Shown here piece by piece: positions 8,952 to 25,665 of a DNA stretch of 64,000 bases. Position 1 is the stretch's first letter. Each line of letters opens with the position of its first letter. Origin of the DNA: Sphingomicrobium sp. XHP0239 (lineage in GTDB: Bacteria > Pseudomonadota > Alphaproteobacteria > Sphingomonadales > Sphingomonadaceae); assembly GCF_039555325.1 (NCBI RefSeq), contig NZ_CP154608.1, forward strand, positions 1,736,001 through 1,800,000, in the 5' to 3' direction. The position numbers and the translations under genes were made by a program. Below the pieces are notes generated by a model. The model did no database searches. It worked only from the letters and a program-made list of their open reading frames with translations, and was not told the DNA's origin.

Positions 8952-9197
8952 ATGAAGAACGACCTGACGCTCACGACCATCGACACCGTCGACAAGGACA
9001 AGCAGGCGCACGTCCGCGCCAAGCCGCTGCCGATCATCAAGGGCCCGCACGAAGGCGACGTGAACTGCGGCGGGTGCGGCACCACCATCGCGCAGGGCGC
9101 CGGCCCTCAGGTGATCCACGCCTTGTTCCAGACCGAACAAGAACTGGTGTTCGAATGCACCTGCGGCGCGCTCAACCTGGTACCGCGCGAAGCCTAG
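8952..9197 (+). CDS. Small protein with two cysteine knuckles (possible zinc ribbon)
   Basis: An 81-aa protein with CGGC near residue 36 and CTC near residue 72, arranged like the two knuckles of a small zinc-binding beta-ribbon. The rest is polar, with no signal peptide. Start chosen at the ATG at 8952 because GAGGA at 8938-8942 sits nine bases upstream; a longer frame reaches 8895 without support. Its TAG stop is overlapped by the stop of the convergent RTX gene through CTAG at 9194-9197. Function unknown. Confidence 0.72.
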   Translation: MKNDLTLTTIDTVDKDKQAHVRAKPLPIIKGPHEGDVNCGGCGTTIAQGAGPQVIHALFQTEQELVFECTCGALNLVPREA

Positions 9198-10924
9198 CCG
9201 AATTCGGTCGCCAGTCCGCCCAGATCGGGCACGGGAGCGACCATGACGTCGGGGACGACGCCGGAACTCGCCGTCGTCGGCGCGACCAGATCTGCGGCGT
9301 CGAACTGCGATTCGCCCGACAGGAAGATCTGGAAATCCGCATCGGTGAACAGGCCGTCGCCATCGCTTTCGAAGATCAGCACCCCCCCGTCCTCGGTCTG
9401 GTAGAAGGCGTACCGAACTTCATTCTCGCCTGTCGACCCGGGCGCTGCCGCGTTCGCAGCGGCGAGGCTCGCGAAATTCCCGAGGAACGTCAGCGATTGT
9501 CCGTCGAAGGCGCCGCTCACGTCGATGTCGTCGACCCCGGCTTCGAAATCGCTGATCGTATCCCGTCCGGCGACCCCGCTGCTCGCGCCGAGCGTTTCGA
9601 ACAGGAAGACGTCCGCGCCTTGGCCTCCGGTCAGGACATCCGCACCCTCGCCGCCTTCGATAAGGTCGCCGAAGGCCGTTCCCACAATCTCGTCGTCGCC
9701 GACGCCGCCCGCCAGCACGAGCGCGCGGCCGATTCCGCTGGCATCGATCTCGCTGCCCTGATCGCCGAACACCGCGAAAGCATCAAAATCCGATGCGTCG
9801 AACAGTCCGCCTAGGATGATCGACACGTCCTGCTCGATTTCCAGCGATTCCACGCCACTGACGACTGCCAGCTGCGATTCGCTAGCCAACGTGGTCAGCA
9901 GCAGCCGGTCGAACCCTTCGCCGCCGATCACCCGGTCATCGGCGCCGAGAAAGCCCTGGAAGAAGAAGCTGTCGTTGCCCGTCCCCCCGTCCGCATAGGT
10001 CGGGGCGTTGTTGTAGACGAAGAAGGTGTCGTCGCCCGCTCCGCCGAACAGCGCGTTGATCCGCGACCCGTTCGAATTGAGAAAGTCGTCGCCCTCGCCG
10101 CCATAGGCGAAGTCGCCGCGCCCGTCGGCGGCACTGCTGCCGGTCCACAGTTCGTCGCTGCCCGCGCCGCCCCGCACGATATCCCCGCCGCGATCGTTGT
10201 CGGTATCCAGATAATCATCGCCCGCACCGCCGATCAGCTCGAGCCCGTAGGCCGAGACGTCGGGATAAGCGAATATGAACGCCTGCGTGCCCGCCTCGAA
10301 CGCGCTGGCATCGACAACCAGCAGCTCGCCCTGAGACGGCGCGTTGGAATCGTTGAGGTCGAAGGTGAACCGGGTAACCCCGTCGGCGGCCGTCAGGTTG
10401 ATCCGCTCGAAGCCCGTGACAGGCGAGCCGTCCGGGACCGAAACGTTGCCGGTTACCAGTGCCTCGAGCACATCGTATCCGTCACCGCCGTCGATCGGCT
10501 GCGTCCCGTCGAAGCCGGTCACGGTGGCAACGCCGTTGCCACCATCGGTCGCCGGCAGAGCGCTCGGGCTTGAGCCGATCACGGTATCCCCGAGAACGAA
10601 GGCGTTGAGATCGCTGTCGAACGTCAGCGTTCTGGCGTCCGTCCCGCCGTCGAACGTAATCGCGGTGGCCGCGGCGCCCGCGGGAATCACGAGCGTCGCA
10701 TCCGGTCCGGTAAGCGTCACGACCGTGCCAAGCACCGACACCTGATAATCCGCAGCCGATCCCGGCAGGTTGATCGTGTCCCCGCCGGTATTGAAGCTCG
10801 AATTGAGCTCGACCCGGCCCGACACCACCGTGACGACCTCGTTCGCCGCCGTCGTTCCGACGACAAGCACGTCGCCGCCGACGATGACGTCTTCACCCTC
10901 GTCCACCAAGATCAACCGCGCCAT
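9194..10924 (-). CDS. RTX calcium-binding repeat protein, type I secretion substrate
   Basis: A 576-aa acidic protein with no cysteine, lysine or histidine. Residues 1 to about 115 form a beta-rich module (MARLILVDEGEDVIVGG, then GGDTINLPG) also found in the 188-aa and 1546-aa neighbours. The middle and C-terminal parts hold nonapeptide RTX repeats (GGAGDDYLD, GGEGDDFLN, GGAGDDTFF, GGEGADVLT, GGQGADVFL) that bind calcium outside the cell. These are followed by a DxDxDG-type loop (ESDGDGLFTDADFQ) and a C-terminal tail ending GGLATEFG. No enzymatic domain is evident, so a structural or surface role is more likely than a toxin. AGGAGA precedes the ATG. Probably exported by the type I system at 20771-25665. 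Confidence 0.85.
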   Translation of the reverse strand: MARLILVDEGEDVIVGGDVLVVGTTAANEVVTVVSGRVELNSSFNTGGDTINLPGSAADYQVSVLGTVVTLTGPDATLVIPAGAAATAITFDGGTDARTLTFDSDLNAFVLGDTVIGSSPSALPATDGGNGVATVTGFDGTQPIDGGDGYDVLEALVTGNVSVPDGSPVTGFERINLTAADGVTRFTFDLNDSNAPSQGELLVVDASAFEAGTQAFIFAYPDVSAYGLELIGGAGDDYLDTDNDRGGDIVRGGAGSDELWTGSSAADGRGDFAYGGEGDDFLNSNGSRINALFGGAGDDTFFVYNNAPTYADGGTGNDSFFFQGFLGADDRVIGGEGFDRLLLTTLASESQLAVVSGVESLEIEQDVSIILGGLFDASDFDAFAVFGDQGSEIDASGIGRALVLAGGVGDDEIVGTAFGDLIEGGEGADVLTGGQGADVFLFETLGASSGVAGRDTISDFEAGVDDIDVSGAFDGQSLTFLGNFASLAAANAAAPGSTGENEVRYAFYQTEDGGVLIFESDGDGLFTDADFQIFLSGESQFDAADLVAPTTASSGVVPDVMVAPVPDLGGLATEFG

Positions 10925-10994
10925 GACGCTCTCCTATCGACTCGTTACTTCATGGACCAATGTGCGGCATGAGGGGGGTACTGGCAACACGACC

Positions 10995-11561
10995 CTAGGA
11001 AAGCTCGCCGCCGAGCGTGGGGAGGTCGATCGCGATCGGAAGCGAAATCGGGCCGATTCCTCCTCCGCCCGCAGGACTTCCACCCGTGCCAGACCCGACG
11101 TCGCCGACCACGTCCAGACCGCCCATGCCCCCGTCCATCGACATGAGAAACGTGTTGAGATCGGCGTCGCTGGTCGGCCCGGACAGGGGCGCAGGCGTCG
11201 TCCCGATCGCGACCCCGTCGAGCTCGAACCGTCCGTCGGCACTGTCGAACACCAAAGTCCGCGCATCGTCTCCGTTCGAGAAGGAGACCGTGTTCGCGAG
11301 GTCGCTCGTCGGGATCGTGACCGTCGTGCCCGCCGTGGGGTTCTCGAAGATGATCCGCGCGCCCTCTGAGCGGACGGTATAATCCTCTGCGTCACCCGGT
11401 AGGCGGATCGTGTCCCCCCCGGTCGTGAAGGAGGAATTGAGCACGACGTTGCCCGCGACGATCGTAATGGTTTCGCCGCCAGCGGTGGTGCCGATCACCT
11501 CGACGTTGCTGCCGCCGATGATGACGTCCTCGCCTTCTTCCAGCAGAATAACGCGTGCCAT
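10995..11561 (-). CDS. Minimal member of the type I substrate family (shared N-module plus tail)
   Basis: A 188-aa protein without cysteine, lysine, histidine or tryptophan. Residues 1 to about 118 are the same module as in the 1546-aa neighbour (MARVILLEEGEDVIIGG, VVLNSSFTTGGDTIRLPGD, FDSADGRFELDG). The rest is a Gly-rich linker and a tail ending LPTLGGELS, resembling the ends of the two larger proteins. There are no RTX or Ig-like repeats, so it is essentially the module joined to a putative secretion tail. Start set at 11561 because AGGGGA precedes that ATG and the paralogues begin with MAR; the frame upstream is non-coding in character. Function unknown. Confidence 0.8.
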   Translation of the reverse strand: MARVILLEEGEDVIIGGSNVEVIGTTAGGETITIVAGNVVLNSSFTTGGDTIRLPGDAEDYTVRSEGARIIFENPTAGTTVTIPTSDLANTVSFSNGDDARTLVFDSADGRFELDGVAIGTTPAPLSGPTSDADLNTFLMSMDGGMGGLDVVGDVGSGTGGSPAGGGGIGPISLPIAIDLPTLGGELS

Positions 11562-11926
11562 GATGGATTCCCCTTCGGTTTGGTATGAGAGCTCCGTGGT
11601 CGCAGTCCTCGGAAGCGGGTTCAACCCGGTAACGCCGGAAAATGGGTGGGGTTCGCGAGCATTGAACGCCGCGCGACGCACGAGCACGCGACGGTACCGG
11701 GGCCTGGGCGAGATCTTTCCGCGCTGCTCGTCCGACTAAGGCGCCGGCTCGATCCGACGCTCGCGGATGGCCTGTTCCCGATGACCACGTCGAACACTAT
11801 GGCCAATTATCGCGATTGAGCTGCGAGCGATGCGAAGGCGCTGCCCTCATCGCCCGATAGATTTACGATTTTCCGCAGCGAGCGCGCCGGCGCTCCGCCA
11901 CGAACGATCCCAGCATCGCGATGCCT
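11562..11926. other. Intergenic region between two secreted-protein genes
   Basis: This stretch separates the start of the 188-aa gene from the end of the 1546-aa gene, both on the minus strand. It should hold the promoter of the 188-aa gene. I could not identify convincing -35/-10 boxes, a tRNA or a small gene in it. The terminator of the upstream gene lies just beyond it. Confidence 0.5.
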
Positions 11927-11963
11927 CAAAAGGAAAGGGCCCCCCGCTTTCGCGGGAGGCCCT
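11927..11963 (-). terminator. Rho-independent terminator of the 1546-aa gene
   Basis: Hairpin at 11936-11963 with 12-base arms (AGGGCC-CCCCGC pairing with GCGGGAGGCCCT, one mismatch) and a TTTC-type loop. On the minus strand it is followed by CTTTCCTTTTG. It lies 35 bases past the stop of the 1546-aa gene. Confidence 0.75.
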
Positions 11964-11997
11964 CGCCTTACTGATCGTCCGGTGGACGAAGCTGGCG

Positions 11998-14900
11998 TTA
12001 GCCGAGCTCCGAACCGAGCGAACCCATGTCGAACGGGCTGACCATGACGTCCAGACCTTCCGGCGCCATAGCGAGCAGTTCCGGATTGCCATCGTCGTCC
12101 GAACCCGGCGCACCCGCACTAGCGGGCACAAAGTCACCCGGTCCGGCAAGGTTGGCCGCGTTGAACGCCGCGACACCATTCAGAAGGATCTGAATGTCCG
12201 CACCGCTGATGTCACCATCGTCATCCACGTCGATGTAGAGGATGTTGCTCGAGGTGTCGTAGATCGCCTCGATAACACCGTCGCCACCCGTGATGGAGCT
12301 TTCGACTTCGGCGAAGCCATTCACGTTACCAACGAACTCGATGTCGTCAGCCTCGCCGTCTCCGTCCAGATCGATGAAGATCTGATCGGTCGCACCGAGG
12401 TCCGTGATCGTGTCGCGGCTCGTAGCACCGAAGCTCTGGCCCTGATCATCGTAGTAGAAGATGTCACTGCCAACGCCACCGGTCAGCTGATCCGCGCCGT
12501 TGCCGCCACGGATCACGTCGTTCCCGGCACCACCGTTGATGACGTCGTTCCCGTTGTTGCCGTCGATGTAGTCGTTACCGCCACCACCGAGGAGCGTGTC
12601 CGCACCGGCACCACCAACGATCGTGTCAGCATTGTTGCTTCCGGTCACGTTGAAGGCGAGGTTCGAACCCTGACCACCGAAGGCCAGGCTCTCGTTCGCG
12701 GAAAGACCCGAGGCCGTCACCGAGAGCGGTCCGTCGAAGTCGGCCACATCAAGCGCCGAGCCATCAACGAAGACCGTACCCGACGAACCCGCCGAGGTCG
12801 CGGTATTGTCCGTGGTGATCACGATATTGTCGACGTTGACGATGTTGGACAGGTCGGCCATCGCACCGCCTTCGAAGTCGAAGGTGATGGTGGTGTTGCC
12901 TTCGCCGCCCTGAACGGTGTCGCCGTCAAGCTGGCTTGCGGTTTCGAAGTCGACGATGATGTCGCCTTCCGCTTCCGAAGCATTGATGAAGTCGTTGCCT
13001 TCACCCGTCACGATGGTGAGATCGTTGTCGAAGCCCTGGCCGACCGTGATGTCGTCATCCGTGTCAGTGCCGACGATCGTGTCGATCCCGGCCTGAGCCG
13101 CACGCGACCCGACCGTGACGCTGTCCGTATCATCGGTCAGCTGCACGATTTCCACGTCTTCGATATCGATGAACGCATCGTCCTCAAGGTCGCCGCCGGT
13201 CACCGCGATGATGTCGCGACCGCCGTTACCGTCGAAGTCGACAGTCGAACCGGCATCGTCACCGTCGATCGCGAGAACGTCGACACCCGAGCCCCCCGTG
13301 AAGTTGATGTTGTTATCAACCCCGACGTTCAGCTTGTTTACGACCGTCCGCGACGCACCACCGGTGATGTTGAACGTATAGTCGTTATCGGGAGTGTTGA
13401 TCTCGATCACGTTGGTGTCGTTCACATCGGTCACCGCGGAGGTGTCGATGTTGATCGGCGTGACGCTGGTTACCGACCCACCCGTGAAGGTGAGCGTGTT
13501 GACCTGCGCAGCATTCTCGTTCGCTGCCGTCGCGGGATTGTCGGTGATGCCGTTGCCGAGGAACGCGTAGTTTTCGACATTGGTAACATTCGACAGGTTC
13601 ACGTCGGCATCGATCGCCGTGTTGCCCACACCGCGGACGTCGAGCAGGATGGTGTCCGTTCCGGCACCGCCATTGATGACGTCATCGGTCCGAAGCTCCG
13701 AACCCTGCGCGATAACGGTGTCGTTTCCGCCGTTCAGCGTGACGTTGTTCACGCCGCTGTTCAGCAGAACCGTGTCGGCTCCGGAGCCGGTGATGACGAC
13801 GTCGTTGCCGCCCGCACCCTGGAAGCCGGTGTCGACCGTCAGACCACGCGAGAACGCCGAGGCGTCGACGCGATCGTCAGTGCTACCCGCCAGAACCACG
13901 GAGGTGATGCCGGTTTCGACCGCTTCCGCACCGAGCGTAAAGTTCTCGGCAGCGCCGCCATTCTGACCGCCAAGCGTTTCGACGTTCGTCACGTTGGTGA
14001 GGTCGGCATCGACGAGCACACCGTCGGTCCAGAACTGATCGACGCCGTCGCCGCCATCGTAGCTGTCGCCGGCATCGAAATCGCCGTTGGTGAAGAGGGC
14101 GTCATTGCCCGCACCGCCGAAGACCCGGTTGTCGCCGCCATCGGTGGCTACGAAGGTGAAGGTGTCGTTGCCAGCTTCACCGTAGAGGTCGTTGTCGCCG
14201 CCGTAGGTATCGATGCTGTCGTTGCCGTCACCGCCATAGGCGATGTCGGCAAGGCCGGCTTCACCGCCGACGTCGATATCGTCGTCACCACCGTTACCGT
14301 AGATCACGTCGCCACCGATGCCCTGATCGGACCACAGCGAGTCGTCACCTTCGCTACCGCGGATGAGGACATTGTAGTCCTGCGAGCCCGCATGGATCGA
14401 GACTTCGTCCGCATCGGCGTCCACGGCCGTCGCGTCGATCTCGAGGACCCCGCCTTCGGAAGGCGCATTGCCGTCGTTCAGGTCGAGATGGAAGGCACCA
14501 TCACCCGAAAGGGTGACCAGTTCGAAACCGCTGAATTGGAAGGTCGAGTAATTGGCGAAGTCGAAGATGTTGAGCGTATCGCTGCCCTCACCGGCGTTCA
14601 GCACGTCAGAGCTGAACAGACCGTCGACATTCACGACATCGTCCGAGTCACCCAGATCGACATTGTTATTGCCGCCATCGACGTTGACCGTCAGCGAGCC
14701 GTCGAAGTCGGTCGCGTCAAGGTCGGTCGAGTCAGACGAGTCGAGACCCAGATTGACGACTTCGATACCAGCTTCGAGCGCTTCTTCACCGAGGACGACG
14801 CTCGAACCGTCGGTCGCCGACAGAACGGTGACACCTTCGAAATCGGTGAAGTCTTCATCGTCGATGTCGTCGTCGTCGGTAACGACCGTGTCACCGTCGT

Positions 14901-16638
14901 CGCCGCTGAGGATGACGGTCGGCGTGTCGCTCAGATCGTCGATCGAGACCACCGTGCTACCAACGTGTGCGCTGGCATCGAGGACCTGAAGCGTTCCGGG
15001 CAGGTTGCCGAGGAACAGGTCGCCTTCGCCAAAGACGTTGAGCGTGGTGATGTCGGAGTCGAGGCCGTCGATCTCGCTGTCGCCTTCGACGTTCAGGTTG
15101 ATCGTTTCGACACCCGCCGACGAGTCGCCGTTCAGACCACCGATGGTGATCGTGCCGGGGTTGGCATCGTCAACGGTCAGATTGACCGTCGTGTTGCCGG
15201 CCAGAACGCTGTCCTGGAAGTCGACAAGCACGTTGGCCGAGTCCGTCACATTGTCGACAACGATGTCGACAAGGTTGGTCAGCTGGTTGAACTCGACGTC
15301 ATCCGAGCTGTTCTGCGTGATCACGGCTTCGAGACCGACGCTGCTCGACAGATCGATCGTGACGGTTTCACCCGAATCGTTGGTGACGAAGAGGTTCTCG
15401 ACCTGGTCGAGAACGAACGCACCATATTCGATGTCGCCGGTGCCGAAGATACCGCCGCCCGAGGCCTGCGAGTCCACGAAGAGACGCAGTTCGTCGTTAT
15501 CGCCACCGTTCGGATCGTCGATGCGGTCGCCGGCGCCGAGCTGGTTATTGCGGGCGATGTAGATATCATCGTCCTGCGTGCCGCTGATGCGGTCGACGCC
15601 TTCGGTCAGCTGCGTGGTCGTGCCGATCGACGTGCCGTTGACCGTGATGGTCAGCGTGTTCGTGTCGGTGTTACCCGCCGGGTCGGTGACCTGGTAGGTG
15701 ACGACAACGTCCTGGCTCTCACCGTCGTTCAACGGCTGATAAGCAGCGTTCGACGCGTCGAGCGTGTAGGTGCCATTGGGGTTCAGCGTGAAGCCGGCCG
15801 GCGCGGCGCCAACCAGCGTGAAGGTCAGCGGCTGACCTTCGGGATCGGTCGCGTCGTCCGCGAGCGTGCCCGAGATGGTCGTGTCTTCGTCGCCTTCGTC
15901 GGTAGCGGCCGTCGCAACGGGATCGCTGTCTTGGCCGTTCACGGTGACTGTGGCGGTCGCAATGTCGCTATTACCAGCCTCATCGGTAACCGTGTAGCTG
16001 AACGTCACTGTCGCAGTTTCGCCCGGGTCAAGTTCGGCATAGGCCGCATCGCTCGTGTCGAGCGTAAACGTGCCGTCATCGTTGAAGGTGAGGCCCGCAA
16101 CGTCGGTGCCGTCGACCAGTTCGAAGGTCAGATCGTCCGCGTCGGTGTCGACGTCAGTGTCATTCGCACCGACATCGCCCGAAAGCACCGCATCTTCGTT
16201 GACCGAGAACGTGTCGTCATTGGCGTTCGGCGCGAACGTTTCGACGAAGCCGTCGGGACGTACCGCAGTGTCCTGGTTCGTGATCGGCTGACCATCGAGT
16301 TCGAAGCGCCCGTCGACACTGTCGAACACGAGCTCGCGCGCGTCGTCGCCGCCCGAGAAGGTGATGGTGTTGGCGTTACCCGACGCCGGAAGCTGGATGG
16401 TGTCACCGGTCACCGTGTTGGTGAAGATGATCTGCGCGCCTTCCGAACGCACTACATAATCCTCGGCGTCGCCGGGGAGATTGATCGTGTCGCCGCCAGC
16501 GGCGAACGAGGCGTTCAGGACTACGTTGCCCGAAACAATGGTGATTTCCTCACCGCCGGAAGTCGTACCTACTACTACGATATCATCGCCACCGACGATG
16601 ATGTCTTCGCCTTCTTCCGTAAGAATAACCCGTGCCAT
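11998..16638 (-). CDS. Giant acidic RTX/Ig-like surface protein, type I secretion substrate
   Basis: A 1546-aa, very acidic protein with no cysteine and one lysine. Order: shared N-terminal module (about 1-118), two cadherin/Ig-like repeats (about 135-330, each with NDDGTFTLD- or NPNGTYTLD-type strands), a long beta-solenoid-like region rich in N, T, D and V with scattered RTX motifs (about 330-1340), a compact RTX block (about 1342-1400: GGAGADTLL, GGGGNDYID, GGAGNDVIR), then two calcium-loop motifs (DLDGDGEADD, DVDDDGDISGAD) and a tail ending GSLGSELG. This is the layout of an RTX adhesin or S-layer-like protein. An AAGGAG site precedes the ATG, and a terminator follows the stop. Probably exported by the adjacent type I system. 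Confidence 0.88.
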   Translation of the reverse strand: MARVILTEEGEDIIVGGDDIVVVGTTSGGEEITIVSGNVVLNASFAAGGDTINLPGDAEDYVVRSEGAQIIFTNTVTGDTIQLPASGNANTITFSGGDDARELVFDSVDGRFELDGQPITNQDTAVRPDGFVETFAPNANDDTFSVNEDAVLSGDVGANDTDVDTDADDLTFELVDGTDVAGLTFNDDGTFTLDTSDAAYAELDPGETATVTFSYTVTDEAGNSDIATATVTVNGQDSDPVATAATDEGDEDTTISGTLADDATDPEGQPLTFTLVGAAPAGFTLNPNGTYTLDASNAAYQPLNDGESQDVVVTYQVTDPAGNTDTNTLTITVNGTSIGTTTQLTEGVDRISGTQDDDIYIARNNQLGAGDRIDDPNGGDNDELRLFVDSQASGGGIFGTGDIEYGAFVLDQVENLFVTNDSGETVTIDLSSSVGLEAVITQNSSDDVEFNQLTNLVDIVVDNVTDSANVLVDFQDSVLAGNTTVNLTVDDANPGTITIGGLNGDSSAGVETINLNVEGDSEIDGLDSDITTLNVFGEGDLFLGNLPGTLQVLDASAHVGSTVVSIDDLSDTPTVILSGDDGDTVVTDDDDIDDEDFTDFEGVTVLSATDGSSVVLGEEALEAGIEVVNLGLDSSDSTDLDATDFDGSLTVNVDGGNNNVDLGDSDDVVNVDGLFSSDVLNAGEGSDTLNIFDFANYSTFQFSGFELVTLSGDGAFHLDLNDGNAPSEGGVLEIDATAVDADADEVSIHAGSQDYNVLIRGSEGDDSLWSDQGIGGDVIYGNGGDDDIDVGGEAGLADIAYGGDGNDSIDTYGGDNDLYGEAGNDTFTFVATDGGDNRVFGGAGNDALFTNGDFDAGDSYDGGDGVDQFWTDGVLVDADLTNVTNVETLGGQNGGAAENFTLGAEAVETGITSVVLAGSTDDRVDASAFSRGLTVDTGFQGAGGNDVVITGSGADTVLLNSGVNNVTLNGGNDTVIAQGSELRTDDVINGGAGTDTILLDVRGVGNTAIDADVNLSNVTNVENYAFLGNGITDNPATAANENAAQVNTLTFTGGSVTSVTPINIDTSAVTDVNDTNVIEINTPDNDYTFNITGGASRTVVNKLNVGVDNNINFTGGSGVDVLAIDGDDAGSTVDFDGNGGRDIIAVTGGDLEDDAFIDIEDVEIVQLTDDTDSVTVGSRAAQAGIDTIVGTDTDDDITVGQGFDNDLTIVTGEGNDFINASEAEGDIIVDFETASQLDGDTVQGGEGNTTITFDFEGGAMADLSNIVNVDNIVITTDNTATSAGSSGTVFVDGSALDVADFDGPLSVTASGLSANESLAFGGQGSNLAFNVTGSNNADTIVGGAGADTLLGGGGNDYIDGNNGNDVINGGAGNDVIRGGNGADQLTGGVGSDIFYYDDQGQSFGATSRDTITDLGATDQIFIDLDGDGEADDIEFVGNVNGFAEVESSITGGDGVIEAIYDTSSNILYIDVDDDGDISGADIQILLNGVAAFNAANLAGPGDFVPASAGAPGSDDDGNPELLAMAPEGLDVMVSPFDMGSLGSELG

Positions 16639-16679
16639 AATTTACTCCTTTTGCCCCTCAGTTAAGAGAGTATGGGTGT

Positions 16680-16707
16680 ATCATAATTTTGTCGCGCGGT
16701 CTGTCCG
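16680..16707 (-). promoter_or_regulatory. Candidate promoter of the 1546-aa gene
   Basis: On the minus strand, CGGACA (16702-16707) and TATGAT (16680-16685) are separated by 16 bases. The -10 matches the sigma-70 consensus at 5 of 6 positions and the -35 at 4 of 6. The predicted start would leave an untranslated leader of roughly 35 bases before the ATG at 16638. Inferred from sequence only. Confidence 0.4.
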
Positions 16708-16948
16708 TAACGGAAAGCCGCGCGCGACGCAAACCGAAAACTCTGTTGAAATTAGTCTTGTAGGCCGGTCTCCGTCAACAATCGTTCGGGTGTGTCACCA
16801 CCGCAACAATCGGGCATCAGACAGGACCCGCGCCCTCCCCGAAACGTTCGCTCACGGTCGGACGATATGTTCAAAGCCTACCCCCTCGATGCGATCGCTG
16901 AAGACGCCGCTATGTGCGCCTGAAGGTGACAATAAAAGGTTACGCCCA

Positions 16949-16985
16949 ATAAAAAAAGGCCCCCGTCGTTCCCGACGAGGGCCTT
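16949..16985 (-). terminator. Rho-independent terminator of the 1130-aa gene
   Basis: Hairpin at 16956-16985 (AAGGCCC-CGTCG pairing with CGACG-GGGCCTT around a short TTCC loop). On the minus strand it is directly followed by a run of seven T. It lies 20 bases past the stop of the 1130-aa gene and is a textbook intrinsic terminator. With the candidate promoter it accounts for most of the 366-base gap at 16639-17004. Confidence 0.9.
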
Positions 16986-17004
16986 CTTTCCATCTGGCGA
17001 TGAC

Positions 17005-20000
17005 TTAACCCAAGAAGAGGGTCTCGTCGGCCATCGGGGCAACCGCAGCGTCACCGCTACCGGTGTCGAAGATGAAGTTCTCCGTGCCCGGACCGATCGC
17101 GTCCTCGGCCTGCTGCTCGTTGAAGATGATCGCGCCATCTTCGACCGAGTTGAGCAGGACGATCTCGCTGACGACACCGTTGAGGTTGATCGCGATCTGG
17201 AGATCGTCGGCCTGGCCATCACCATCGAAGTCACCGCTGGCGAACGCCACGTCCGACGGATCGTCGACCAGGAAGGTCAGCGTGTCGTCGTCACCGAAAT
17301 TGTCGATCGCGACGTTGTTCGCCACCGTGCTGTCGTCGGTGAAGTCGAACGCACCGTCATCGCCGTCCTCGGTGAGGAGGAACTGCGTGTTGGTGTCGCC
17401 GTCATCGTCCTGATCGGCCGACGCCGGCGTAGAGGTGCCTTCACCCGGACCACCGCTGTTGTCAGTTTCGGGAAGCTCGTCACCGAACAGGAAGTTGTTC
17501 GTGTCGGCCCCGATCGCCGCTTCGGCAGTCGTTTCGTCGAATACGATCGAACCCGGAGCAACCGCGTCCAGCAGGAAGACTTGGCTGACCACGCCGCCGA
17601 TGTTGACCGCGATTTCGACGTCGTCAGCAAGACCGTCACCGTCGAAGTCGCCGCTGGCGAACGCAACATCGCTCGGATCGGCGTTGAAGGTGATCGTATC
17701 ATTGTCACCGAAATTCAGAACTGAAACATTGTTCTGAAGATCCTGATCGTCCGTAAAGTTGAACGCACCGTCGTCCGCATCGAGCACCGCGCCGGTGACC
17801 GCACCGTCTTCGCGAATGGCGAAGCGTGTGGCGTTATCATTGTCATCATCGACGTCGAGACTGATGAAGTCGAACGGGTCCGGGTCTGCAGCAACCGTCA
17901 CCGTCGCGGTCGACGAGGCAGTACCGCCGTTGCCGTCCGAGATGGTGTAGTCGATCACCGCGTCGCCCTCGAAACCGTCGTTAGGCGTGAAGGTGATCGT
18001 GCCGTCATCGTTTATGACCACGGTGCCGTCGTCCGAAGTGGCGGCGGTGACCGTCAGATCATCGTCATCGTCGGGATCGGTGTCGTTCGCCAGCACGTCG
18101 ATCGTGACCGCGGATTCGAAGTCCGCATTCGCAGTGTCAGCATTTGCCGTCGGCGCATCGTTCACGCCGGTCACCGTCAGCGTCACCGTCGCGGTGTCGC
18201 TGTCGCTGTCATCATCGCCACCGTCGGCATCCGAGAGGACATAGTCGAACGTGTAGGTCTGCGTTTCACCCGCGGCGAGCGACTGGTAGGCCGGCGCCGA
18301 GGTGTCGAGCGACCACGTGCCGTCCGCATTGAGCGTGAAGGCCGGCGGAAGGACCGAGCCGTCCGCAAGCATGACCATCACGTCGCCGCCGTCGGCATCC
18401 ACATCGTTGGCCGTCACGTCACCGGTCACTACGCCGCTGTCTTCGGTCGCAGCGTATACGTCGTCGATAGCATCAAGCGCATCAACAACCGGATCCACGG
18501 TGACCGTCAGCGTCGCCGTATCGGTCAGCTCACCGTCGCTCACCGTGTAGGTGATCGTCGCCGTGCCGTTGAAGTCGGCCGCCGGCGAGAAGGTCAGCGT
18601 ACCATCTTCATTGATGACAACCGTACCCTGTGCCGGATCGACCGTCGCAGAAGTGACCGTCAGGTCATCGCCGTCACCGTCCGAATCGTTGGCAAGAACG
18701 TCAACGGTGACATCGGTGTCCTCATCGGTGTTGGCCGTATCGTCGACCGCAATCGGTGCGTCAGCAACCGGATCGACCGTGACCGTCAGCGTCGCCGTAT
18801 CGGTCAGTTCACCATCACTCACCGTGTAGGTGATCGTCGCCGTGCCGTTGAAGTCGGCCGCCGGCGAGAAGGTCAGGGTACCATCTTCATTAATTTCGAC
18901 CGTACCCTGTGCCGGATCGACCGTCGCAGAAGTAACCGTCAGGTCATCGCCGTCACCGTCCGAATCGTTGGCAAGAACGTCGACGGTGACATCGTTGTCC
19001 TCGTCGGTGTTGGCCGTATCATCGACCGCAAGCGGCGCATCGGCAACCGGATCGACCGTGACCGTCAGCGACCCATCGGTGGTGTCGGTGCCATCCGAAA
19101 CGGTGAAGTTGATCACCGCATCGCCGTTAAAGTCGGCGTCGGGCGTGAAGGTGATCGTGCCATCATCATTGATGACGACCGTACCATTGTCCGAATCAGC
19201 CGATACGATCGTCAGATCGTCGCCGTCCGCATCCACAACGTTACCGAGGATGTCGATTTCGACAGCAGTGTCTTCGTCGGTGTCAGCGTCGATGACGCCG
19301 GTGACGTCCGGAGCGTCGTTTACCGGGTTCACAGTGACCGTCACGGTGCCGGTGTCAGTTACCGTGCCGTCGCTCACCGTGTAGGTGATCGTCGCCGTGC
19401 CGTTGAAATCGTCGGCGGGCGAGAAGGTGATCGTGCCGTCGTCGTTGATCTCGACCGTACCCTGCGCGGCCGGGACTGTCGCAGCAGTAACAATCAGATC
19501 ATCGTCCGCATCGGCGTCCGTGTCGTTGGCAAGCACGTCGATGGTAACATCGGTGTCCTCGTCCGTGACGGCGGTGTCGTCGACCGCGACCGGCGCGGCG
19601 TTGTCGGTCACGCCGTTGATGACGATCGTCAGCGTCCCGGTCGAGCTACCCGTGCCGTCCGAAGCGACGAAGTCCACGGAGAGGGTCCGCGTCTCGCCAT
19701 CGTCGAGATCCTGGTAGCCAGGCTGGTCGGCATCGAAGGTGAACGTGCCGTCCGAGTTGAACGTCAGGCCCGCCGGCGCCGTGCCGACAAGCGTGAAGGT
19801 CGGCGTATCGTCCGGGTCGACCGCGGTGACGCGGCCCGAAACGTCCGCATCTTCGTCGACCGTGATCGACGTATCCTGCGCGATCGGCGGGATGTTGATG
19901 TCGATCACGTCGAGATCGTCATCGTCATCGTCGCTCGACAGCAGCAGAACGCCGCCACCGATGATGAGGGCCGTCAGACCAACGGCGAGGAACGGGCTGA

Positions 20001-20397
20001 CCGTGTCGTCGTCGTCGTCGTAATAACCGTCGTCGTCATCGTCCATGTCCTGCGCCGCAGCGGCGTCGACGATGGCTTCGACTTCGGCGAGCGTTTCGGC
20101 GGCGACATCCTCGTCTTCCGCGTCGCTCTTCTCGTCTTCGTCCTTGTCTTCCTTCTTGGCCGTCTTTTCGTCGGCCTCGTCTTCGGCTTCGACGTCGCCC
20201 TCGACGACGGCTTCTGCCTCAGCGGCTGCCACACTGGCCGCCGCGAGAGCCGCGGCCTGCGCCGCGATTTCCGCCTGGCTCGGGGCCGGCGCCTGCGTTT
20301 CGGTTGCGGTTGCGGTTTCCGTCGTTTCTACGGTGTCCGCAGCTTCCGCACCGCTGTCTGCATTCGACGTATCAATCGATCCCACAGCGTCGGTCAT
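17005..20397 (-). CDS. Large Ig-like-repeat adhesin with N-terminal hydrophobic anchor
   Basis: An 1130-aa acidic, cysteine-free protein. Residues 1-130 are Ala/Glu/Asp-rich, coiled-coil-like, and contain the only lysines. Residues about 133-154 form one hydrophobic segment (FLAVGLTALIIGGGVLLL) flanked on both sides by poly-aspartate. From about 170 come tandem cadherin/CshA/VCBS-like repeats of 90-100 residues (VDDTA-TDEDTDVTVDVLAND and NDDGTITFSP signatures). Two of these are nearly identical at the DNA level. The C-terminus holds two copies of a domain of about 95 residues (FTDD, then FASGDFDGDG, then a NNFLFG- or ENFIFD-type end) and finishes LFLG. The layout resembles LapA/BapA-type adhesins held by an N-terminal retention element. 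AGGGAG precedes the ATG; transcribed divergently from the secretion genes. Confidence 0.87.
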   Translation of the reverse strand: MTDAVGSIDTSNADSGAEAADTVETTETATATETQAPAPSQAEIAAQAAALAAASVAAAEAEAVVEGDVEAEDEADEKTAKKEDKDEDEKSDAEDEDVAAETLAEVEAIVDAAAAQDMDDDDDGYYDDDDDTVSPFLAVGLTALIIGGGVLLLSSDDDDDDLDVIDINIPPIAQDTSITVDEDADVSGRVTAVDPDDTPTFTLVGTAPAGLTFNSDGTFTFDADQPGYQDLDDGETRTLSVDFVASDGTGSSTGTLTIVINGVTDNAAPVAVDDTAVTDEDTDVTIDVLANDTDADADDDLIVTAATVPAAQGTVEINDDGTITFSPADDFNGTATITYTVSDGTVTDTGTVTVTVNPVNDAPDVTGVIDADTDEDTAVEIDILGNVVDADGDDLTIVSADSDNGTVVINDDGTITFTPDADFNGDAVINFTVSDGTDTTDGSLTVTVDPVADAPLAVDDTANTDEDNDVTVDVLANDSDGDGDDLTVTSATVDPAQGTVEINEDGTLTFSPAADFNGTATITYTVSDGELTDTATLTVTVDPVADAPIAVDDTANTDEDTDVTVDVLANDSDGDGDDLTVTSATVDPAQGTVVINEDGTLTFSPAADFNGTATITYTVSDGELTDTATLTVTVDPVVDALDAIDDVYAATEDSGVVTGDVTANDVDADGGDVMVMLADGSVLPPAFTLNADGTWSLDTSAPAYQSLAAGETQTYTFDYVLSDADGGDDDSDSDTATVTLTVTGVNDAPTANADTANADFESAVTIDVLANDTDPDDDDDLTVTAATSDDGTVVINDDGTITFTPNDGFEGDAVIDYTISDGNGGTASSTATVTVAADPDPFDFISLDVDDDNDNATRFAIREDGAVTGAVLDADDGAFNFTDDQDLQNNVSVLNFGDNDTITFNADPSDVAFASGDFDGDGLADDVEIAVNIGGVVSQVFLLDAVAPGSIVFDETTAEAAIGADTNNFLFGDELPETDNSGGPGEGTSTPASADQDDDGDTNTQFLLTEDGDDGAFDFTDDSTVANNVAIDNFGDDDTLTFLVDDPSDVAFASGDFDGDGQADDLQIAINLNGVVSEIVLLNSVEDGAIIFNEQQAEDAIGPGTENFIFDTGSGDAAVAPMADETLFLG
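18486..19043 (-). repeat. Two tandem 279-bp repeats encoding Ig-like domains
   Basis: The sequence around 18486 recurs with few changes at 18765, and the start of the unit recurs again at 19044, giving an exact period of 279 bases (93 codons). Each unit encodes one cadherin-like domain of the 1130-aa protein. Flanking domains are related but diverged, so this pair is a recent in-frame duplication. Confidence 0.9.
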
Positions 20398-20770
20398 TTC
20401 AATCTCCCTTTTATACTCTTACGTATTCATCGAGCTTTCAGTCCCCGTTAGGAAAGGCAGAAATGCCCAATCCCTCCCGTTCCGAGTGGACTTGGCGCCC
20501 ACTCCTACAGGTCATGACAGGTTCTTCAAGCCGTAAATTTGCAATGTCGTTTCGTCTCCGGGTGGAATGGTCGCAACGCGCGATGATCCGAAAAGTCTCA
20601 AAGTTTCTGCGGTTTTGGGAACCTGTTGCGAAAGTGTCGCGCCCCGTTCGCACCCGAAAAGGAACATCCTCTTGGAATGCAAAGGTTTCCGTGCCATATG
20701 CCCCGGCCGGGCTGGGGACCCGAAACCGCCGCCTTCACCTTAGTCGATTATAGAAGAAGGGTTATCCGCC
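20398..20770. other. Divergent intergenic region between adhesin and type I secretion genes
   Basis: This 373-base region must contain promoters for the minus-strand 1130-aa gene and the plus-strand secretion operon. On the minus strand TATAAA occurs just ahead of the ribosome-binding site, too close to serve as its -10. On the plus strand TTGGAA-N17-CATATG near 20675 is a weak sigma-70-like candidate. I see no gene or convincing operator here. Confidence 0.45.
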
Positions 20771-22357
20771 TTGCCGATTGCCGCTGTTCGTTCCGGCGCT
20801 GCCCCCAACCGGATCCTCCGTCCGTTCCTCGCCCGTACCGGCCTCGCCGTCTTGCTGGCGGGCGTCGCGGCGAGCGCTTTCGCGCAGCAGGTGCCGGACC
20901 AGCCCGTGCCGCCGCCCCCGCCGCTCACGCAGCCCACCCCGGCCCCGACACCGCCCGTGACGACCCGGCCGGTGCCGGACGGAACGGTGTCCGACCGCCC
21001 GCTGCTCGACCGCCCGTCTTCGCTCGACGATCCGGCAGGCACGCTGGCGACCGACGGCGAAGCCGCGATCGATGTGACCGCGCAAGACCCGCTCGCCGCC
21101 GACGTCGCTGCGGGACAGCCTTCGGTCTACGGCCCCATCGACACGCGCACCGACGTCGCCCCGCTCGAGGTCGTGCCCTCCGATGCGCCCGGCGTTCCCG
21201 TCCGGCTCCAGGACGGCGCCATTTCCGCGCTGTCGAGCTTCCCCGCGCTGCGCTCGGCCCGCGCCAACATCCGCGCCGCCGACCTCGAGGTCGATGCCGC
21301 CAAGTGGCTCTACGGCCCCAGCGTCACCGTCGGTGCCCTTACGCGCGGTGTCGGCGGGGTCAGCCCCGAATTGACCGTCACCCAGCCGATCTATTCCTTC
21401 GGCCGCATCGAGGGGACGATCGAACGCGCCAAGGCCGTCCGCAATTTCGAGGCGACCACGCTCGGCGAACTGGCCGAGAACGTCCTCCTGCGCCTCGCCG
21501 AGAACTATTACGAGATCGTCCGTACCAGCCAGGTCATGGATGCGCTCGAAGTCAGCATCGCCGAACATCAGCGTCTGGTCGAAAGCATCGGTCGCCGCGT
21601 CGACCGCGCCGTCAGCCCCCGCTCTGATCTGGAGCTGGCCGACGCCCGCCTCGCACAGGTGCGTCAGCAATATGCGCTGGTCACGGCGCAGCGCTACGCC
21701 GCGCAGGAACGCTATCGCGAACTGACCGGTCAGCCGAGCGTGCCGACCCCGCCGTTCGACCCCTATAATCCGCAGGTCCATCACCCCAGCCCCGAAGATG
21801 CGATCCAGCGCGCGGTCGCCTGTTCGCCGACCATCGACCGACTGGGCGCCGAGGCCGAGATCGCCGAGGCCGATCGTCGCATCGCGGGCGCCGCCATCTA
21901 TCCCCAGCTGGGCGTGCAGTATCGCTACGACGAGTTCCGCGGCAGCCAGCTTGGCCTCTCGGTCCAGGCGAGCAGCCAGGCGGGTCTCCAGCCCTTCATC
22001 GCCGCCGACGCGGCCCGTGCGCGGGTCGATGCCGCGCTGCTCGAGGTCAACGTCGCCGAGCGGCAGGTCCGCGAGGCGCTCATCCTCGATCTCGTCGAGA
22101 ACCAGTCCTCGCGCGGCCGCATCACCTCGAGCGCCGCCGCCTCGACCGCGTCCGAAGCCGTCACCGACAGCTACCTGCGCCAGTTCGTCGCGGGGCGCCG
22201 CACGTGGCTCGATGTCATGAATGCCGTGCGCGAAGCGTCGAATGCGCGTATCGGGTTGGTGGAAAGCGAAGTCAGCGCCATGTCGTCGGCGGCGCGCATC
22301 CGGATACGTACATGCGAGTGGCGGCCCTATCCCGCCCTCCAGGAGGTTCAAGAATGA
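20771..22357 (+). CDS. TolC-family outer-membrane channel of a type I secretion system
   Basis: A 528-aa outer-membrane efflux protein. Signal peptide at about 18-39 (LAVLLAGVAASAFAQ), then an unusual extension of roughly 110 residues (proline-rich to about 75) before the coiled-coil/barrel OEP repeats, which begin near 150 (FPALRSARANIRAADLEV; VTQPIYSFGRIEGTIERAKA; second repeat PTIDRLGAEAEIAEADRRIA). Start: TTG at 20771, because AAGAAGG at 20754-20760 is well placed and no in-frame ATG precedes the signal peptide. The stop overlaps the ABC exporter start as ATGA. It should form the exit duct with the two downstream proteins. Confidence 0.88.
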   Translation: MPIAAVRSGAAPNRILRPFLARTGLAVLLAGVAASAFAQQVPDQPVPPPPPLTQPTPAPTPPVTTRPVPDGTVSDRPLLDRPSSLDDPAGTLATDGEAAIDVTAQDPLAADVAAGQPSVYGPIDTRTDVAPLEVVPSDAPGVPVRLQDGAISALSSFPALRSARANIRAADLEVDAAKWLYGPSVTVGALTRGVGGVSPELTVTQPIYSFGRIEGTIERAKAVRNFEATTLGELAENVLLRLAENYYEIVRTSQVMDALEVSIAEHQRLVESIGRRVDRAVSPRSDLELADARLAQVRQQYALVTAQRYAAQERYRELTGQPSVPTPPFDPYNPQVHHPSPEDAIQRAVACSPTIDRLGAEAEIAEADRRIAGAAIYPQLGVQYRYDEFRGSQLGLSVQASSQAGLQPFIAADAARARVDAALLEVNVAERQVREALILDLVENQSSRGRITSSAAASTASEAVTDSYLRQFVAGRRTWLDVMNAVREASNARIGLVESEVSAMSSAARIRIRTCEWRPYPALQEVQE

Positions 22358-24459
22358 CTCTCACCCTGCTGATCGAAAAGCTGGCCGCCGCGCAGGGCGC
22401 CGACCTGTCGCCCAACTGGCGGCTCGAGCTCGGTGACGAGGACTTCGACACCATGTCGCCCAACGGCCTCTATTATAACGAGGACGGATTGTACGCGCTC
22501 GCCCGCGCTGCTGGCTGGAAACCACCGGTCGAAATCCGCGGCCGTCCGCGACCCAACCAGTTCCCGTTGTTGATGCTGCTGCCCGAAAAGGGCTGGGTCA
22601 TCGCCGAACAGTGGGAAAGCCTCGACAGCGTCCGCACCAGCGGTCCCGCGGGCTCGCGCGTCATGCTCGTCCCCGAAGGCGCCAGCTTCTATTCGCTCAA
22701 GATCCCGCAGCTTCGCGACCGTACCGGCGGCCAGCGCGCGATCGACGTCTTCTGGCGTGCCCTGCTTCTTCGTAAGGGCATCTTCGTGTCGGCCGTCGTC
22801 GCGACCGTGATCGTCAACCTCATCGGTCTCGCCACCGCGCTCTTCTCGATGCAGGTCTACGACCGCGTCATTCCGCGTGGCGGCTTCTCGACCCTTTACG
22901 TGATGACCGTCGGCGTGCTGATCGCGCTGGCGCTCGACTTCCTCCTGCGCACCACGCGCAGCCTGATGATCGAGCGCGAGGCGGCGAAGATCGACGCCGA
23001 AGTCTCCGAATATTTCTTCGCTCGTGCCCAGGCCGTGCGCCTCGACGCGCGGCAGGGCGGCATCGGCACGATGGCCTCGCAGATTCGCGGCTGGGAACAG
23101 ATTCGCGGACTGATGAGCGCCGGCTCGATCTTTCTGATCGCCGACCTGCCCTTCGCGCTCTTCTTCATCTTCGTCATCTACGCGATCGCCGGACCCCTCG
23201 CCTTCGTGCCGCTCGTCAGCTTCCCGCTGGCGGTGATCATGGCGCTGATCTTCGCGCGCCTGATCCGCAAGGACACGGCCCGTGCGCAGGTCTCGGGCAA
23301 CCGCAAGAACGGCATGCTGGTCGAAAGCCTCGATGCCGCCGAGACGATCAAGGCCAACCGCGGCAACTGGCACATGCTTGCCCGCTGGAACCAGCTGATG
23401 GACGAAGTCCAGATGCACGAAGATCCGGTCAAGCGGTGGAGTTCGATCGCGACCTCCATGTTCACCGCGCTCCAGCAGACGACCTATGTGCTGATCGTCG
23501 CGGCCGGCGCCATCCTCGTGGCGCAGGGCGACCTCACCGCGGGTGCGCTGATCGCCTGCGCGATCATCGCGGGCCGGGTCAACGGACCGCTGGTGGCGCA
23601 GCTTCCCAACCTTCTCGTCCAGTGGGGCTATGCGCGTTCCTCGCTCAACGGTCTCGACATGCTGATGCAGCTGCCGCTCGACCAGGATCCCGAGGTCGAG
23701 GGCCTTCGCCCCGAGAGAATCGACCCCACCCTCAAGCTCGAGAATGTCGCCTTCGCCTATCCGGGCGTACGCACCGGCATCGAGATCCCGAAGTTGCAGA
23801 TCGAGGCTGGCGACCGCGTCGGCATCATCGGCGGCATCGGGTCGGGCAAGTCGACGCTCCTGCGCGTGATGGCGGGGCTCTACGCGCCCGCTCAGGGCAA
23901 CGTGCAGGTCGGCGGTCTCGACCTCGGTCTGATCGCGCCCGACGTTCTGCGCCGCCACGTCGGCTACCTGCCGCAGGATACACGCCTTCTGAACGGCACG
24001 CTGCGCGAGAACCTTCTCATGGGCCTGTCGGACCCGGGCGATGAAAAGCTGATGGCGACCATCGACAAGGTCGGGCTCGGCAACCTCGTCGCTAACCATC
24101 CGCACGGCCTCGACCTCATGATCCAGGAAGGCGGGCGCGGCCTGTCGGGCGGGCAGCGTACGCTCGTCAACATGGCGCGCCTGATGCTCGCCAATCCGGC
24201 GGTGTGGCTGCTCGACGAGCCGACCTCCAACCTCGATCAGGTCACCGAACAGAACCTCCTCAAGACGCTGGCCGAGCTTTTCGGCAGCGAGGCGACCGTG
24301 GTGCTCGTCACCCACCGCATGAAGCTCCTGCAGCTGACCAAGAAGCTCATCGTCATGGCGAACGGAAAGCCGGTCATGATGGGCCCGACGCAGCAGGTGC
24401 TCGAGAAGCTCAAGAGCCAAGGGGGCAAGTCGACCAAGCCGGTACGACTCGCCAGCTAA
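22354..24459 (+). CDS. Type I secretion ABC transporter (LapB/HlyB-like permease-ATPase)
   Basis: A 701-aa inner-membrane exporter. N-terminal domain (about 1-125) looks like the C39-peptidase-like domain of LapB/HlyB exporters but has no cysteine, so it would bind rather than cleave substrate. Membrane domain at about 135-425. ATPase domain with Walker A GGIGSGKST (493-501), signature LSGGQ (597-601) and Walker B VWLLDE (617-622). AGGAGG lies seven bases before the ATG, which overlaps the TolC-like gene's stop. A C39-like domain plus large repeat-rich substrates next door fits adhesin export rather than protease (PrtD-type) export. Confidence 0.93.
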   Translation: MTLTLLIEKLAAAQGADLSPNWRLELGDEDFDTMSPNGLYYNEDGLYALARAAGWKPPVEIRGRPRPNQFPLLMLLPEKGWVIAEQWESLDSVRTSGPAGSRVMLVPEGASFYSLKIPQLRDRTGGQRAIDVFWRALLLRKGIFVSAVVATVIVNLIGLATALFSMQVYDRVIPRGGFSTLYVMTVGVLIALALDFLLRTTRSLMIEREAAKIDAEVSEYFFARAQAVRLDARQGGIGTMASQIRGWEQIRGLMSAGSIFLIADLPFALFFIFVIYAIAGPLAFVPLVSFPLAVIMALIFARLIRKDTARAQVSGNRKNGMLVESLDAAETIKANRGNWHMLARWNQLMDEVQMHEDPVKRWSSIATSMFTALQQTTYVLIVAAGAILVAQGDLTAGALIACAIIAGRVNGPLVAQLPNLLVQWGYARSSLNGLDMLMQLPLDQDPEVEGLRPERIDPTLKLENVAFAYPGVRTGIEIPKLQIEAGDRVGIIGGIGSGKSTLLRVMAGLYAPAQGNVQVGGLDLGLIAPDVLRRHVGYLPQDTRLLNGTLRENLLMGLSDPGDEKLMATIDKVGLGNLVANHPHGLDLMIQEGGRGLSGGQRTLVNMARLMLANPAVWLLDEPTSNLDQVTEQNLLKTLAELFGSEATVVLVTHRMKLLQLTKKLIVMANGKPVMMGPTQQVLEKLKSQGGKSTKPVRLAS

Positions 24460-24471
24460 AGGACGAACGTC

Positions 24472-25665
24472 ATGTTGCAGACCCGTTTCAACCCGCGCCA
24501 CGACACCGGCATGGGCCGTTTCAAGCCCAAGGCGAGCACGGTCATCATCTTCGTGTCGCTGTTCGCGATCGTCGGCTTCCTCGTCTGGTCCATGTGGGCC
24601 AGCATCGACCAGATCAGCCGTGCTCCGGGCGAGGTCATCCCGTCGGGTCGCACGCAGATCATCCAGTCCGAGGAAGGCGGCACGATCGACCAGATCCTCG
24701 TGCAGGAAGGCGACGAGGTCGAGGCCGGACAGCTGCTCGTCCTGCTCGACAAGCGCCAGCCCGCGGCCGCGGTCGACGAAAGCCGGGCGCAGGTCGCCGC
24801 GCTGAAGACCCGCATGGCGCGGATCGAGGCGGAGCTGTTCAACCGTCCGCTCTCCTTCACCTCCGACACCGCCGCCTTCCCCGAATTCCGCGCCAACCAG
24901 AGCCAGCTCTACACGCGCCGTCGGCAGGCGCTGGCGACGCAGACGCAGGCGCTCCAGAACCTCCTCTCGATCACGCGCGAGGAAATCGAGATGGTCCGGC
25001 CGCTGGTCGAGACCGAGGACATCGCGCGCAGCGAGCTGCTGCAGATGCAGCGCACCGCCGCCGACTATCAGGGCCAGATCACCAATTTGCGCTCCGACTA
25101 TCTGGCCGAACTGCAAACCGAATTCGCCGCCACGCAGGAAGAACTCGCGAGCGCCTCTCAGCAGCTGGCGCAGCGCGAGGCCGTGCTCGGCGGGACCGAA
25201 TTGCGCGCGCCCACCGACGGGGTGATCGTGCACGTCGCATTGACGACGATCGGCGGCGTGCTGCGCGCCGGCGACGAGGTTCTCCAGATGGTCCCCTCGG
25301 GCGACGAGCTGATCGTCGAATCGCGCGTCGATCCGGCCGACATCGCCTTCGTGCGTGTCGGCGACGTCGGCAACGTGAAGTTCGACGCCTACGACAGCAC
25401 CATCTACGGCGCCGCCGCGGCGGAGGTCGTGTTCGTGTCGGCCGACACGCTGTCGGAGGAAACCGAGGACGGGGTCGAGACCTACTACCGCGTCCGCCTG
25501 TCGGTCGATCCCTCGACGCTGCGACCACGCTCCGCGAACGAGCGGATCTCGCTCCAGCCGGGCATGACCGCGATCGCCGAGATCAAGACCGGCGACCAGA
25601 CGGTGTTCCAGTATCTGACCAAGCCGATCCTCAAGACGGCGGGCGAGGCACTGGGCGAACGCTAG
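24472..25665 (+). CDS. HlyD-family periplasmic adaptor of the type I secretion system
   Basis: A 397-aa membrane-fusion protein linking the ABC exporter to the TolC-like channel. Short cytoplasmic N-terminus, one membrane helix (about 24-45), first lipoyl half (GGTIDQILVQEGDEVEAGQLL), a long alpha-helical hairpin (about 95-240), second lipoyl half (GTELRAPTDGVIVHV) and a beta-barrel domain ending in IKTGDQTVFQYLTKPI, typical of HlyD/LapC proteins. It follows the exporter by 12 bases with AAAGGA before the ATG. It is the last gene of the secretion operon and convergent with the next gene. Confidence 0.93.
   Translation: MLQTRFNPRHDTGMGRFKPKASTVIIFVSLFAIVGFLVWSMWASIDQISRAPGEVIPSGRTQIIQSEEGGTIDQILVQEGDEVEAGQLLVLLDKRQPAAAVDESRAQVAALKTRMARIEAELFNRPLSFTSDTAAFPEFRANQSQLYTRRRQALATQTQALQNLLSITREEIEMVRPLVETEDIARSELLQMQRTAADYQGQITNLRSDYLAELQTEFAATQEELASASQQLAQREAVLGGTELRAPTDGVIVHVALTTIGGVLRAGDEVLQMVPSGDELIVESRVDPADIAFVRVGDVGNVKFDAYDSTIYGAAAAEVVFVSADTLSEETEDGVETYYRVRLSVDPSTLRPRSANERISLQPGMTAIAEIKTGDQTVFQYLTKPILKTAGEALGER

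What the first reader, a model, noticed from the sequence alone, without database searches (positions are those of the whole stretch)
9194..25665. Dedicated type I secretion locus with four divergent surface-protein substrates
A complete TolC-like/ABC/HlyD-like export set sits divergent to four large, acidic, repeat-rich proteins of 576, 188, 1546 and 1130 aa, all cysteine-free. Co-location, RTX/Ig-like content and a C39-like but cysteine-less exporter domain together argue for an adhesin or S-layer export locus in a sphingomonad-type bacterium. No LapD/LapG-like control genes are visible.
Basis: partly seen in the sequence, partly recalled or inferred. Interest (0 to 1): 0.75.

Follow-up and report, generated by a model that had tools for sequence, protein, structure and literature searches.

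The report
Dedicated exporter with module-tagged surface proteins
This stretch holds a protein exporter and the surface proteins it probably exports, three of which carry the same undescribed end module that in related bacteria also sits on unrelated enzymes and adhesins, hinting at a shared export or surface-attachment tag.

Summary
The locus is real: TolC-, ABC- and HlyD-type genes face four acidic, cysteine-free proteins. P1, P2 and P3 share a ~115-residue N-terminal module without a Pfam or NCBIfam model; P2 is only that module plus a tail. Two more module proteins lie elsewhere in the genome. The module, found almost only in Sphingomonadales, sits near an end of unrelated passengers: serralysin-like and subtilisin-like proteases, CAP, FG-GAP, Ig and RTX proteins. 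In 396 genomes of the order, 7 of 8 clear module carriers hold this exporter subtype against 16 of 388 others. Of 14 carriers among named genomes, 13 hold it, including 6 of 6 not used for its profile. P4 orthologues sit beside the exporter in 18 of 19 module loci, in 0 of 16 module-free ones. The module is predicted to fold like an RTX beta-roll with cap. Best reading: a lineage-specific surface-display system, LapA-like but without a LapG-type gene at the locus, whose clients carry a portable terminal domain. That domain's role is inferred.

The parts
9194..10924 (-). P1, 576 aa: N-terminal module (about aa 1-116), RTX/serralysin-C-like repeats, tail
10995..11561 (-). P2, 188 aa: standalone module (aa 1-120) plus low-confidence tail
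11998..16638 (-). P3, 1546 aa: N-terminal module, Ig/cadherin-like domains, RTX repeats, tail
17005..20397 (-). P4, 1130 aa: acidic N-terminus, Gly-rich hydrophobic stretch at about aa 136-154, Ig/cadherin repeats, two C-terminal C-modules
20771..22357 (+). TolC/OEP outer-membrane component (start uncertain)
22354..24459 (+). ABC exporter, 701 aa, LssB-like core (616.6 bits, cut-off 693.1) with a distinct N-domain (ABC_N, 22354-22797)
24472..25665 (+). HlyD-type periplasmic adaptor, 397 aa
11935..11964 (-). terminator-like hairpin after P3 (13 pairs); a second GC-rich hairpin with a T run follows P4 in the P4-P3 gap, seen by eye
   Evidence: the region as a whole has fewer such sites (5) than shuffles (mean 10.4)

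Best explanation
A lineage-specific type I secretion and surface-display system. The exporter (TolC/ABC/HlyD; one ABC_N match in each genome that has it) secretes (i) P4, a Bap-like adhesin whose N-terminal Gly-rich hydrophobic stretch probably stops transport and keeps it anchored (inferred), and (ii) a set of clients carrying the terminal module, some encoded beside the exporter and others scattered. The module is predicted to be a beta-roll/cap domain like the end of RTX blocks. It most likely acts as a portable client domain that folds on emergence and helps export and/or attach the passenger at the cell surface. Shown here: genes, module, conserved locus, co-occurrence, diverse passengers, predicted fold. 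Inferred: export of these proteins by this exporter, tethering by P4, the module's role.
Against: No experiment. 16 order genomes have the exporter subtype without a module found, so the exporter does not need it; on the exporter tree the 13 module+ rows are not one clade (5 changes, 3 forced by starred branches). One order genome (G322; also the weak G207) and one gamma-proteobacterial MAG have a module match without the exporter. L146 shows no P4. Fisher values ignore relatedness (G378/G426 are near-copies), ABC_N was profiled from module loci, and the genome searches score only the best 10-11 candidates per genome, so modules may be missed. Hydropathy separates P4 only in part: other windows of P4 orthologues reach 1.87 and module proteins 1.95. 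A C-tail motif [VL]M[IV][AS]P in 4 of 5 own module proteins has a close variant in the adhesin of the other exporter, so the tail does not discriminate. 5 of 25 module proteins scanned had no Pfam match at all. Foldseek E-values are weak (best 8e-3).
Confidence: 0.55

Rival explanations
1. The module is only a structural RTX-type cap that stabilises beta-rolls; it has no sorting or anchoring role. It spread by duplication from the exporter-linked gene, and co-occurrence reflects that history.
For: RTX-block-like predicted fold; P2, P3 and L006 modules group together in the module tree (SH-aLRT 94, quick tree, few columns); 18 of 28 module proteins scanned match PF00353.
Against: P2 and L146 are modules without RTX repeats seen; 10 of 28 scanned have no PF00353 match, e.g. 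L006 FG-GAP, L018 PPC, L026 Ig; the exporter is present in 6 of 6 carriers not used for its profile.
Confidence: 0.3
2. The locus makes an S-layer or biofilm-matrix lattice: P3/P1 are lattice proteins, the module anchors them to LPS or polysaccharide, and standalone P2 is a filler or cap.
For: Large acidic Cys-free proteins; standalone modules recur; tandem modules would suit multivalent binding.
Against: No S-layer family match; profile match to an S-layer chain only at E 0.47; carriers include proteases and CAP proteins.
Confidence: 0.15
3. A LapA-type adhesin system regulated by LapD/LapG.
For: LssB-like exporter core, Bap-like P4; one LapG-family gene exists elsewhere in the genome.
Against: That gene lies beside another exporter that passes the LssB cut-off (778.7 vs 693.1), whereas the window exporter does not (616.6). 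LapD was not searched for.
Confidence: 0.08
4. P4's Gly-rich helix marks a contact-dependent killing system like Caulobacter Cdz.
For: Glycine-zipper-like stretch on a likely type I substrate; Cdz toxins use a type I system and are surface-bound (PMC5380434, passages).
Against: Cdz proteins are small (86 and 84 aa); P4 is 1130 aa with Ig repeats. An immunity gene was not sought.
Confidence: 0.03

Closest known systems
LapA/LapBCE-type (BTLCP-linked) adhesin secretion
   Same: LssB/LapB-like exporter core; large acidic Ig-repeat adhesin; N-terminal element that may keep it on the cell
   Different: No LapG-family gene at the locus (LapD not searched); exporter below the LssB cut-off and its N-domain unaligned; hydrophobic stretch in P4; extra module-bearing proteins
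RTX proteins and their C-terminal caps (block V type)
   Different: No RTX family match in 36 module copies at E<=1 (best of any family E 0.0088); N-terminal or tandem placement; occurs alone
Bap-like adhesins
   Same: Big_9/cadherin repeats preceded by a hydrophobic stretch (P4; one is also seen in L126)
   Different: Low-complexity acidic or Ala-rich N-terminus; conserved C-module without Pfam model
T9SS CTD / sortase-type sorting tags (recalled)
   Same: One terminal domain shared by unrelated passengers, tied to an export apparatus
   Different: Type I exporter; module found at either end; no processing enzyme noticed (not sought); role untested

Membership tests
Type I secretion system | ABC + HlyD-type adaptor + TolC-type channel | tested here: met
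   TolC and ABC genes overlap by 4 bp, ABC and HlyD are 12 bp apart
LssB/LapB subfamily (TIGR03375) | score over the curated cut-off | tested here: not met
   616.6 vs 693.1; 0 of 6 relatives over it
C39 peptidase-like exporter domain | C39 homology of the N-domain | tested here: inconclusive
   no Pfam C39 match; HlyB model reaches into the domain in 2 of 6 relatives; fold job failed
LapA/LapG/LapD system | LapG-type protease with the adhesin locus | tested here: not met
   the only C93 match in the genome lies near another exporter
LapA/LapG/LapD system | LapD | not tested
   no search made
LapA/LapG/LapD system | LapA-type retention module with cleavage site in P4 | not tested
   only by-eye reading of P4's N-terminus
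RTX proteins | PF00353 repeats | tested here: met
   P1 and P3 over cut-off; P2 and P4 no match
RTX block (module itself) | RTX nonapeptide family match | tested here: not met
   0 of 36 copies match PF00353 at E<=1
RTX block (module itself) | beta-roll plus cap fold | tested here: inconclusive
Bap-like adhesin (P4) | tandem Ig/cadherin repeats | tested here: met
   seven Big_9 stretches, E 4.1e-110
S-layer protein | forms a cell-surface lattice | not testable with these tools
   no S-layer family match

The most novel reading that the evidence does not exclude
The module is a general sorting tag of type I secretion: a portable terminal beta-roll domain, working from either end of a protein, that commits unrelated enzymes and adhesins to one dedicated exporter and docks them at the cell surface, perhaps on the P4 tether.
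Probability: 0.25. Interest if true: 0.8.

Novelty: new variant of a known kind. Interest (0 to 1): 0.55.

Why it matters
Type I clients are normally recognised by poorly conserved C-terminal signals (recalled), so clients are hard to predict. A recognisable module tied to one exporter subtype would let clients be listed from sequence, including scattered genes, and makes the question of how a type I exporter chooses and retains several clients testable in sphingomonads. It also suggests a second way of surface display, without a LapG-type gene at the locus, in a genome that carries a LapG-linked exporter as well.

Tried and rejected
Rejected or not claimed: the antisense ORF 11830-16665 as a gene (no Pfam match). 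Homology of module and C-module: hhalign probability 2-37%. A shared upstream motif of P2 and P3: longest exact blastn match 11 bases. A tail motif as an exporter-specific signal: a variant is also in the adhesin of the second exporter. Profile searches of the PDB with module, C-module and ABC_N alignments gave nothing below E 0.05. Plasmid records: no match to the P3 module. One-clade origin of module+ exporters: not supported by the tree.

Literature: six searches, of which only the listings were seen, except passages of PMC12153261, PMC8277102 and PMC5380434. No title or abstract start in these listings names this module; one search returned no paper at all. Subscription papers and preprints are not covered.

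Rows dropped before counts: G207 (E 3.9e-4) from the 'strong' test, with the version including it also (p 2.9e-8); L088 as a duplicate of L036; L091 and L092 from the module tree only; module hits weaker than 1e-15 from the class count. The 44-protein count includes near-copies (G378/G426; G322/G426) and cut ORFs, among them L023's first ORF, which is listed as single but may be the end of a tandem, and L092. Of the 14 named genomes, two look like genomes already counted under G handles (L018's = G032, same contig number, exporter place within 12 bases; L036's = G269, same place), and eight gave rows to the ABC_N profile themselves or through such a copy.

Full report
Setting. The window is bases 1736001-1800000 of a complete 2.42 Mb genome. 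It is a sphingomonad: G032, placed in its genus, appears to be the MAG 'Sphingomonas sp. MGR_bin57' (same contig number and exporter place). The flanks look like housekeeping genes (pirin-like and TrmH-like to the left; carbonic-anhydrase-like, tRNA-Leu and lysC-like to the right; by eye, names recalled).

Genes. The export genes lie at about 20771-25665 (+). Divergent from them on the - strand are P4, P3, P2 and P1. Terminator-like hairpins follow P4 (by eye) and P3, so P4, P3 and P2-P1 may be separate transcription units. All four proteins are free of cysteine with pI near 4.05. P1 and P3 match RTX families over cut-off, P4 matches Big_9/cadherin families, and P2 has no match over a cut-off.

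A shared module. P1, P2 and P3 begin with the same ~115-residue domain (P2/P3 71%, P1/P3 54% identity). Pfam has no model for it: 36 copies scanned at E<=1 gave a best E of 0.0088, no family matched more than 3 members, and no RTX family appeared. NCBIfam gave no family for P2. P2 is this domain plus a tail that is modelled with low confidence. The genome has two further copies far away, on a 919-aa FG-GAP frame and a 728-aa RTX frame.

Distribution. The module was found in 3 of 149 relatives, 9 of 396 genomes of the order (8 strong), none of 384 other genomes of the class sample and 2 of 397 others of the phylum sample, both weak. A one-pattern scan of named genomes gave 19 loci: 17 in Sphingomonadales (one of them Pacificimonas), one in a gamma-proteobacterial MAG and one in a Pseudomonadota MAG. 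These searches score a limited number of candidates, so misses are possible.

Architecture. In 44 module proteins (near-copies and cut ORFs included) the script classed the module as single and N-terminal in 25, in tandem near the C-terminus in 16, in tandem near the N-terminus in 2 and elsewhere in 1. Exporter-linked copies are mostly single and N-terminal: 16 such proteins at 14 loci against one tandem protein there (L033), and a second tandem beside an exporter in L144. The other tandem proteins had no exporter in the stretch fetched. Of 25 module proteins scanned, passengers are serralysin-type metalloproteases (L020, L021, L024, L087), CAP proteins (L027, L033, L035), a subtilase (L023), FG-GAP (L006), PPC (L018, L020) and Ig/RTX proteins; five, all exporter-linked single-module proteins, have no Pfam match (L022, L025, L028, L076, L079).

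Link with the exporter. The exporter's N-terminal domain (ABC_N) occurs in 4 of 149 relatives, three of them the module carriers. In the order sample 23 of 396 genomes have it; 7 of the 8 strong module genomes do, against 16 of 388 others (Fisher p 6.6e-9, or 2.9e-8 with the weak genome). In these seven and two relatives the nearest module gene is 4.3-7.6 kb from it. The ABC_N profile was built from module-linked loci, so its scores lean towards them, and relatedness is not corrected for. A less biased test used 14 genomes reached through named module loci, some of them the same as or used with the earlier ones: 13 hold exactly one ABC_N match. Six (those of L021, L024, L029, L030, L034, L035) were not used for the profile, and all six hold it (in L034's genome as a fragment at a contig end). 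Five gave a full neighbourhood: four show the same set (exporter, P4 orthologue, single N-terminal module protein), and the fifth (L146, Sphingomonas colocasiae) shows the exporter and a 214-aa standalone module frame about 3.5 kb away, with no P4 detected.

P4. Its orthologues share a low-complexity N-terminus, a Gly-rich hydrophobic stretch at aa 107-210 of the frames (13 of 14; the other is cut by Ns), Ig/cadherin-like repeats and one to three copies of a ~95-residue C-module at the end (14 of 14). The C-module profile was built from nine of these, but the four new loci match it independently. Hydropathy alone is not a clean mark: other windows in P4 orthologues reach 1.87 and module proteins 1.95. 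None of the 16 module-free exporter loci has a clear P4 orthologue within the stretch fetched (several lie near contig ends); L126 gives one weak match at 0.0085. A long frame of L126 has a different N-terminus followed by a hydrophobic stretch, as in Bap-type adhesins (recalled).

The exporter and the Lap comparison. The window exporter scores 616.6 on TIGR03375 (cut-off 693.1), aligned only from model position 139, and six relatives behave alike. In two of the six the HlyB model extends back to positions 69-73, so part of the N-domain may be C39-like. The same genome has a second exporter that passes the cut-off (778.7), with a large DUF5801 protein, TolC- and HlyD-type genes, a cell-wall-hydrolase-like frame and the genome's only LapG-family match. 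Retention of LapA by an N-terminal module is as summarised in PMC12153261 (passages); CLDs are described in PMC8277102 (passages).

Against the reading. The exporter subtype also exists in 16 order genomes where no module was found; module-bearing exporters are not one clade; G322 and a gamma-proteobacterial MAG have modules but no exporter found; no experiment exists. The tag, cap and lattice readings cannot be told apart from sequence.

Verdict. The new points are the shared, portable terminal module, its tie to one exporter subtype, and the conserved P4 partner. New variant of a known kind.

Noticed in passing
window 11830-16665 (+): 1611-aa open frame antisense to P3 without Pfam match; probably a by-product of the codon make-up of Asp/Gly-rich repeats.
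   Followed up: partly
L118 153-10775 (same genome, C1 about 2.15-12.8 kb): Second type I locus: DUF5801 protein, TolC, LssB-type ABC, cell-wall-hydrolase-like frame, HlyD, LapG-family protease.
   Followed up: partly
window 33355-33450: Predicted tRNA-Ala (ggc) lies inside the lysC-like frame 32332-33552; probably a false call.
   Followed up: no
L023 and L030: Module proteins in a gamma-proteobacterial and a Pseudomonadota MAG: transfer or binning error. L030's genome holds the exporter locus (L147), in L023's none was found.
   Followed up: partly
L129 12480-17817, L134 871-6258: Module-free loci of the same exporter subtype lie beside other large acidic frames (one with an HEXXH zinc-protease-like stretch, by eye) ending in EFYG or EFFG: possibly another client family.
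   Followed up: no
L084 429-10028, L091 8829-19001: Very long frames (over 3000 aa) of G322 and G426 with a tandem module near the N-terminus followed by FG-GAP-like repeats (by eye); no exporter of this subtype was found in G322.
   Followed up: partly
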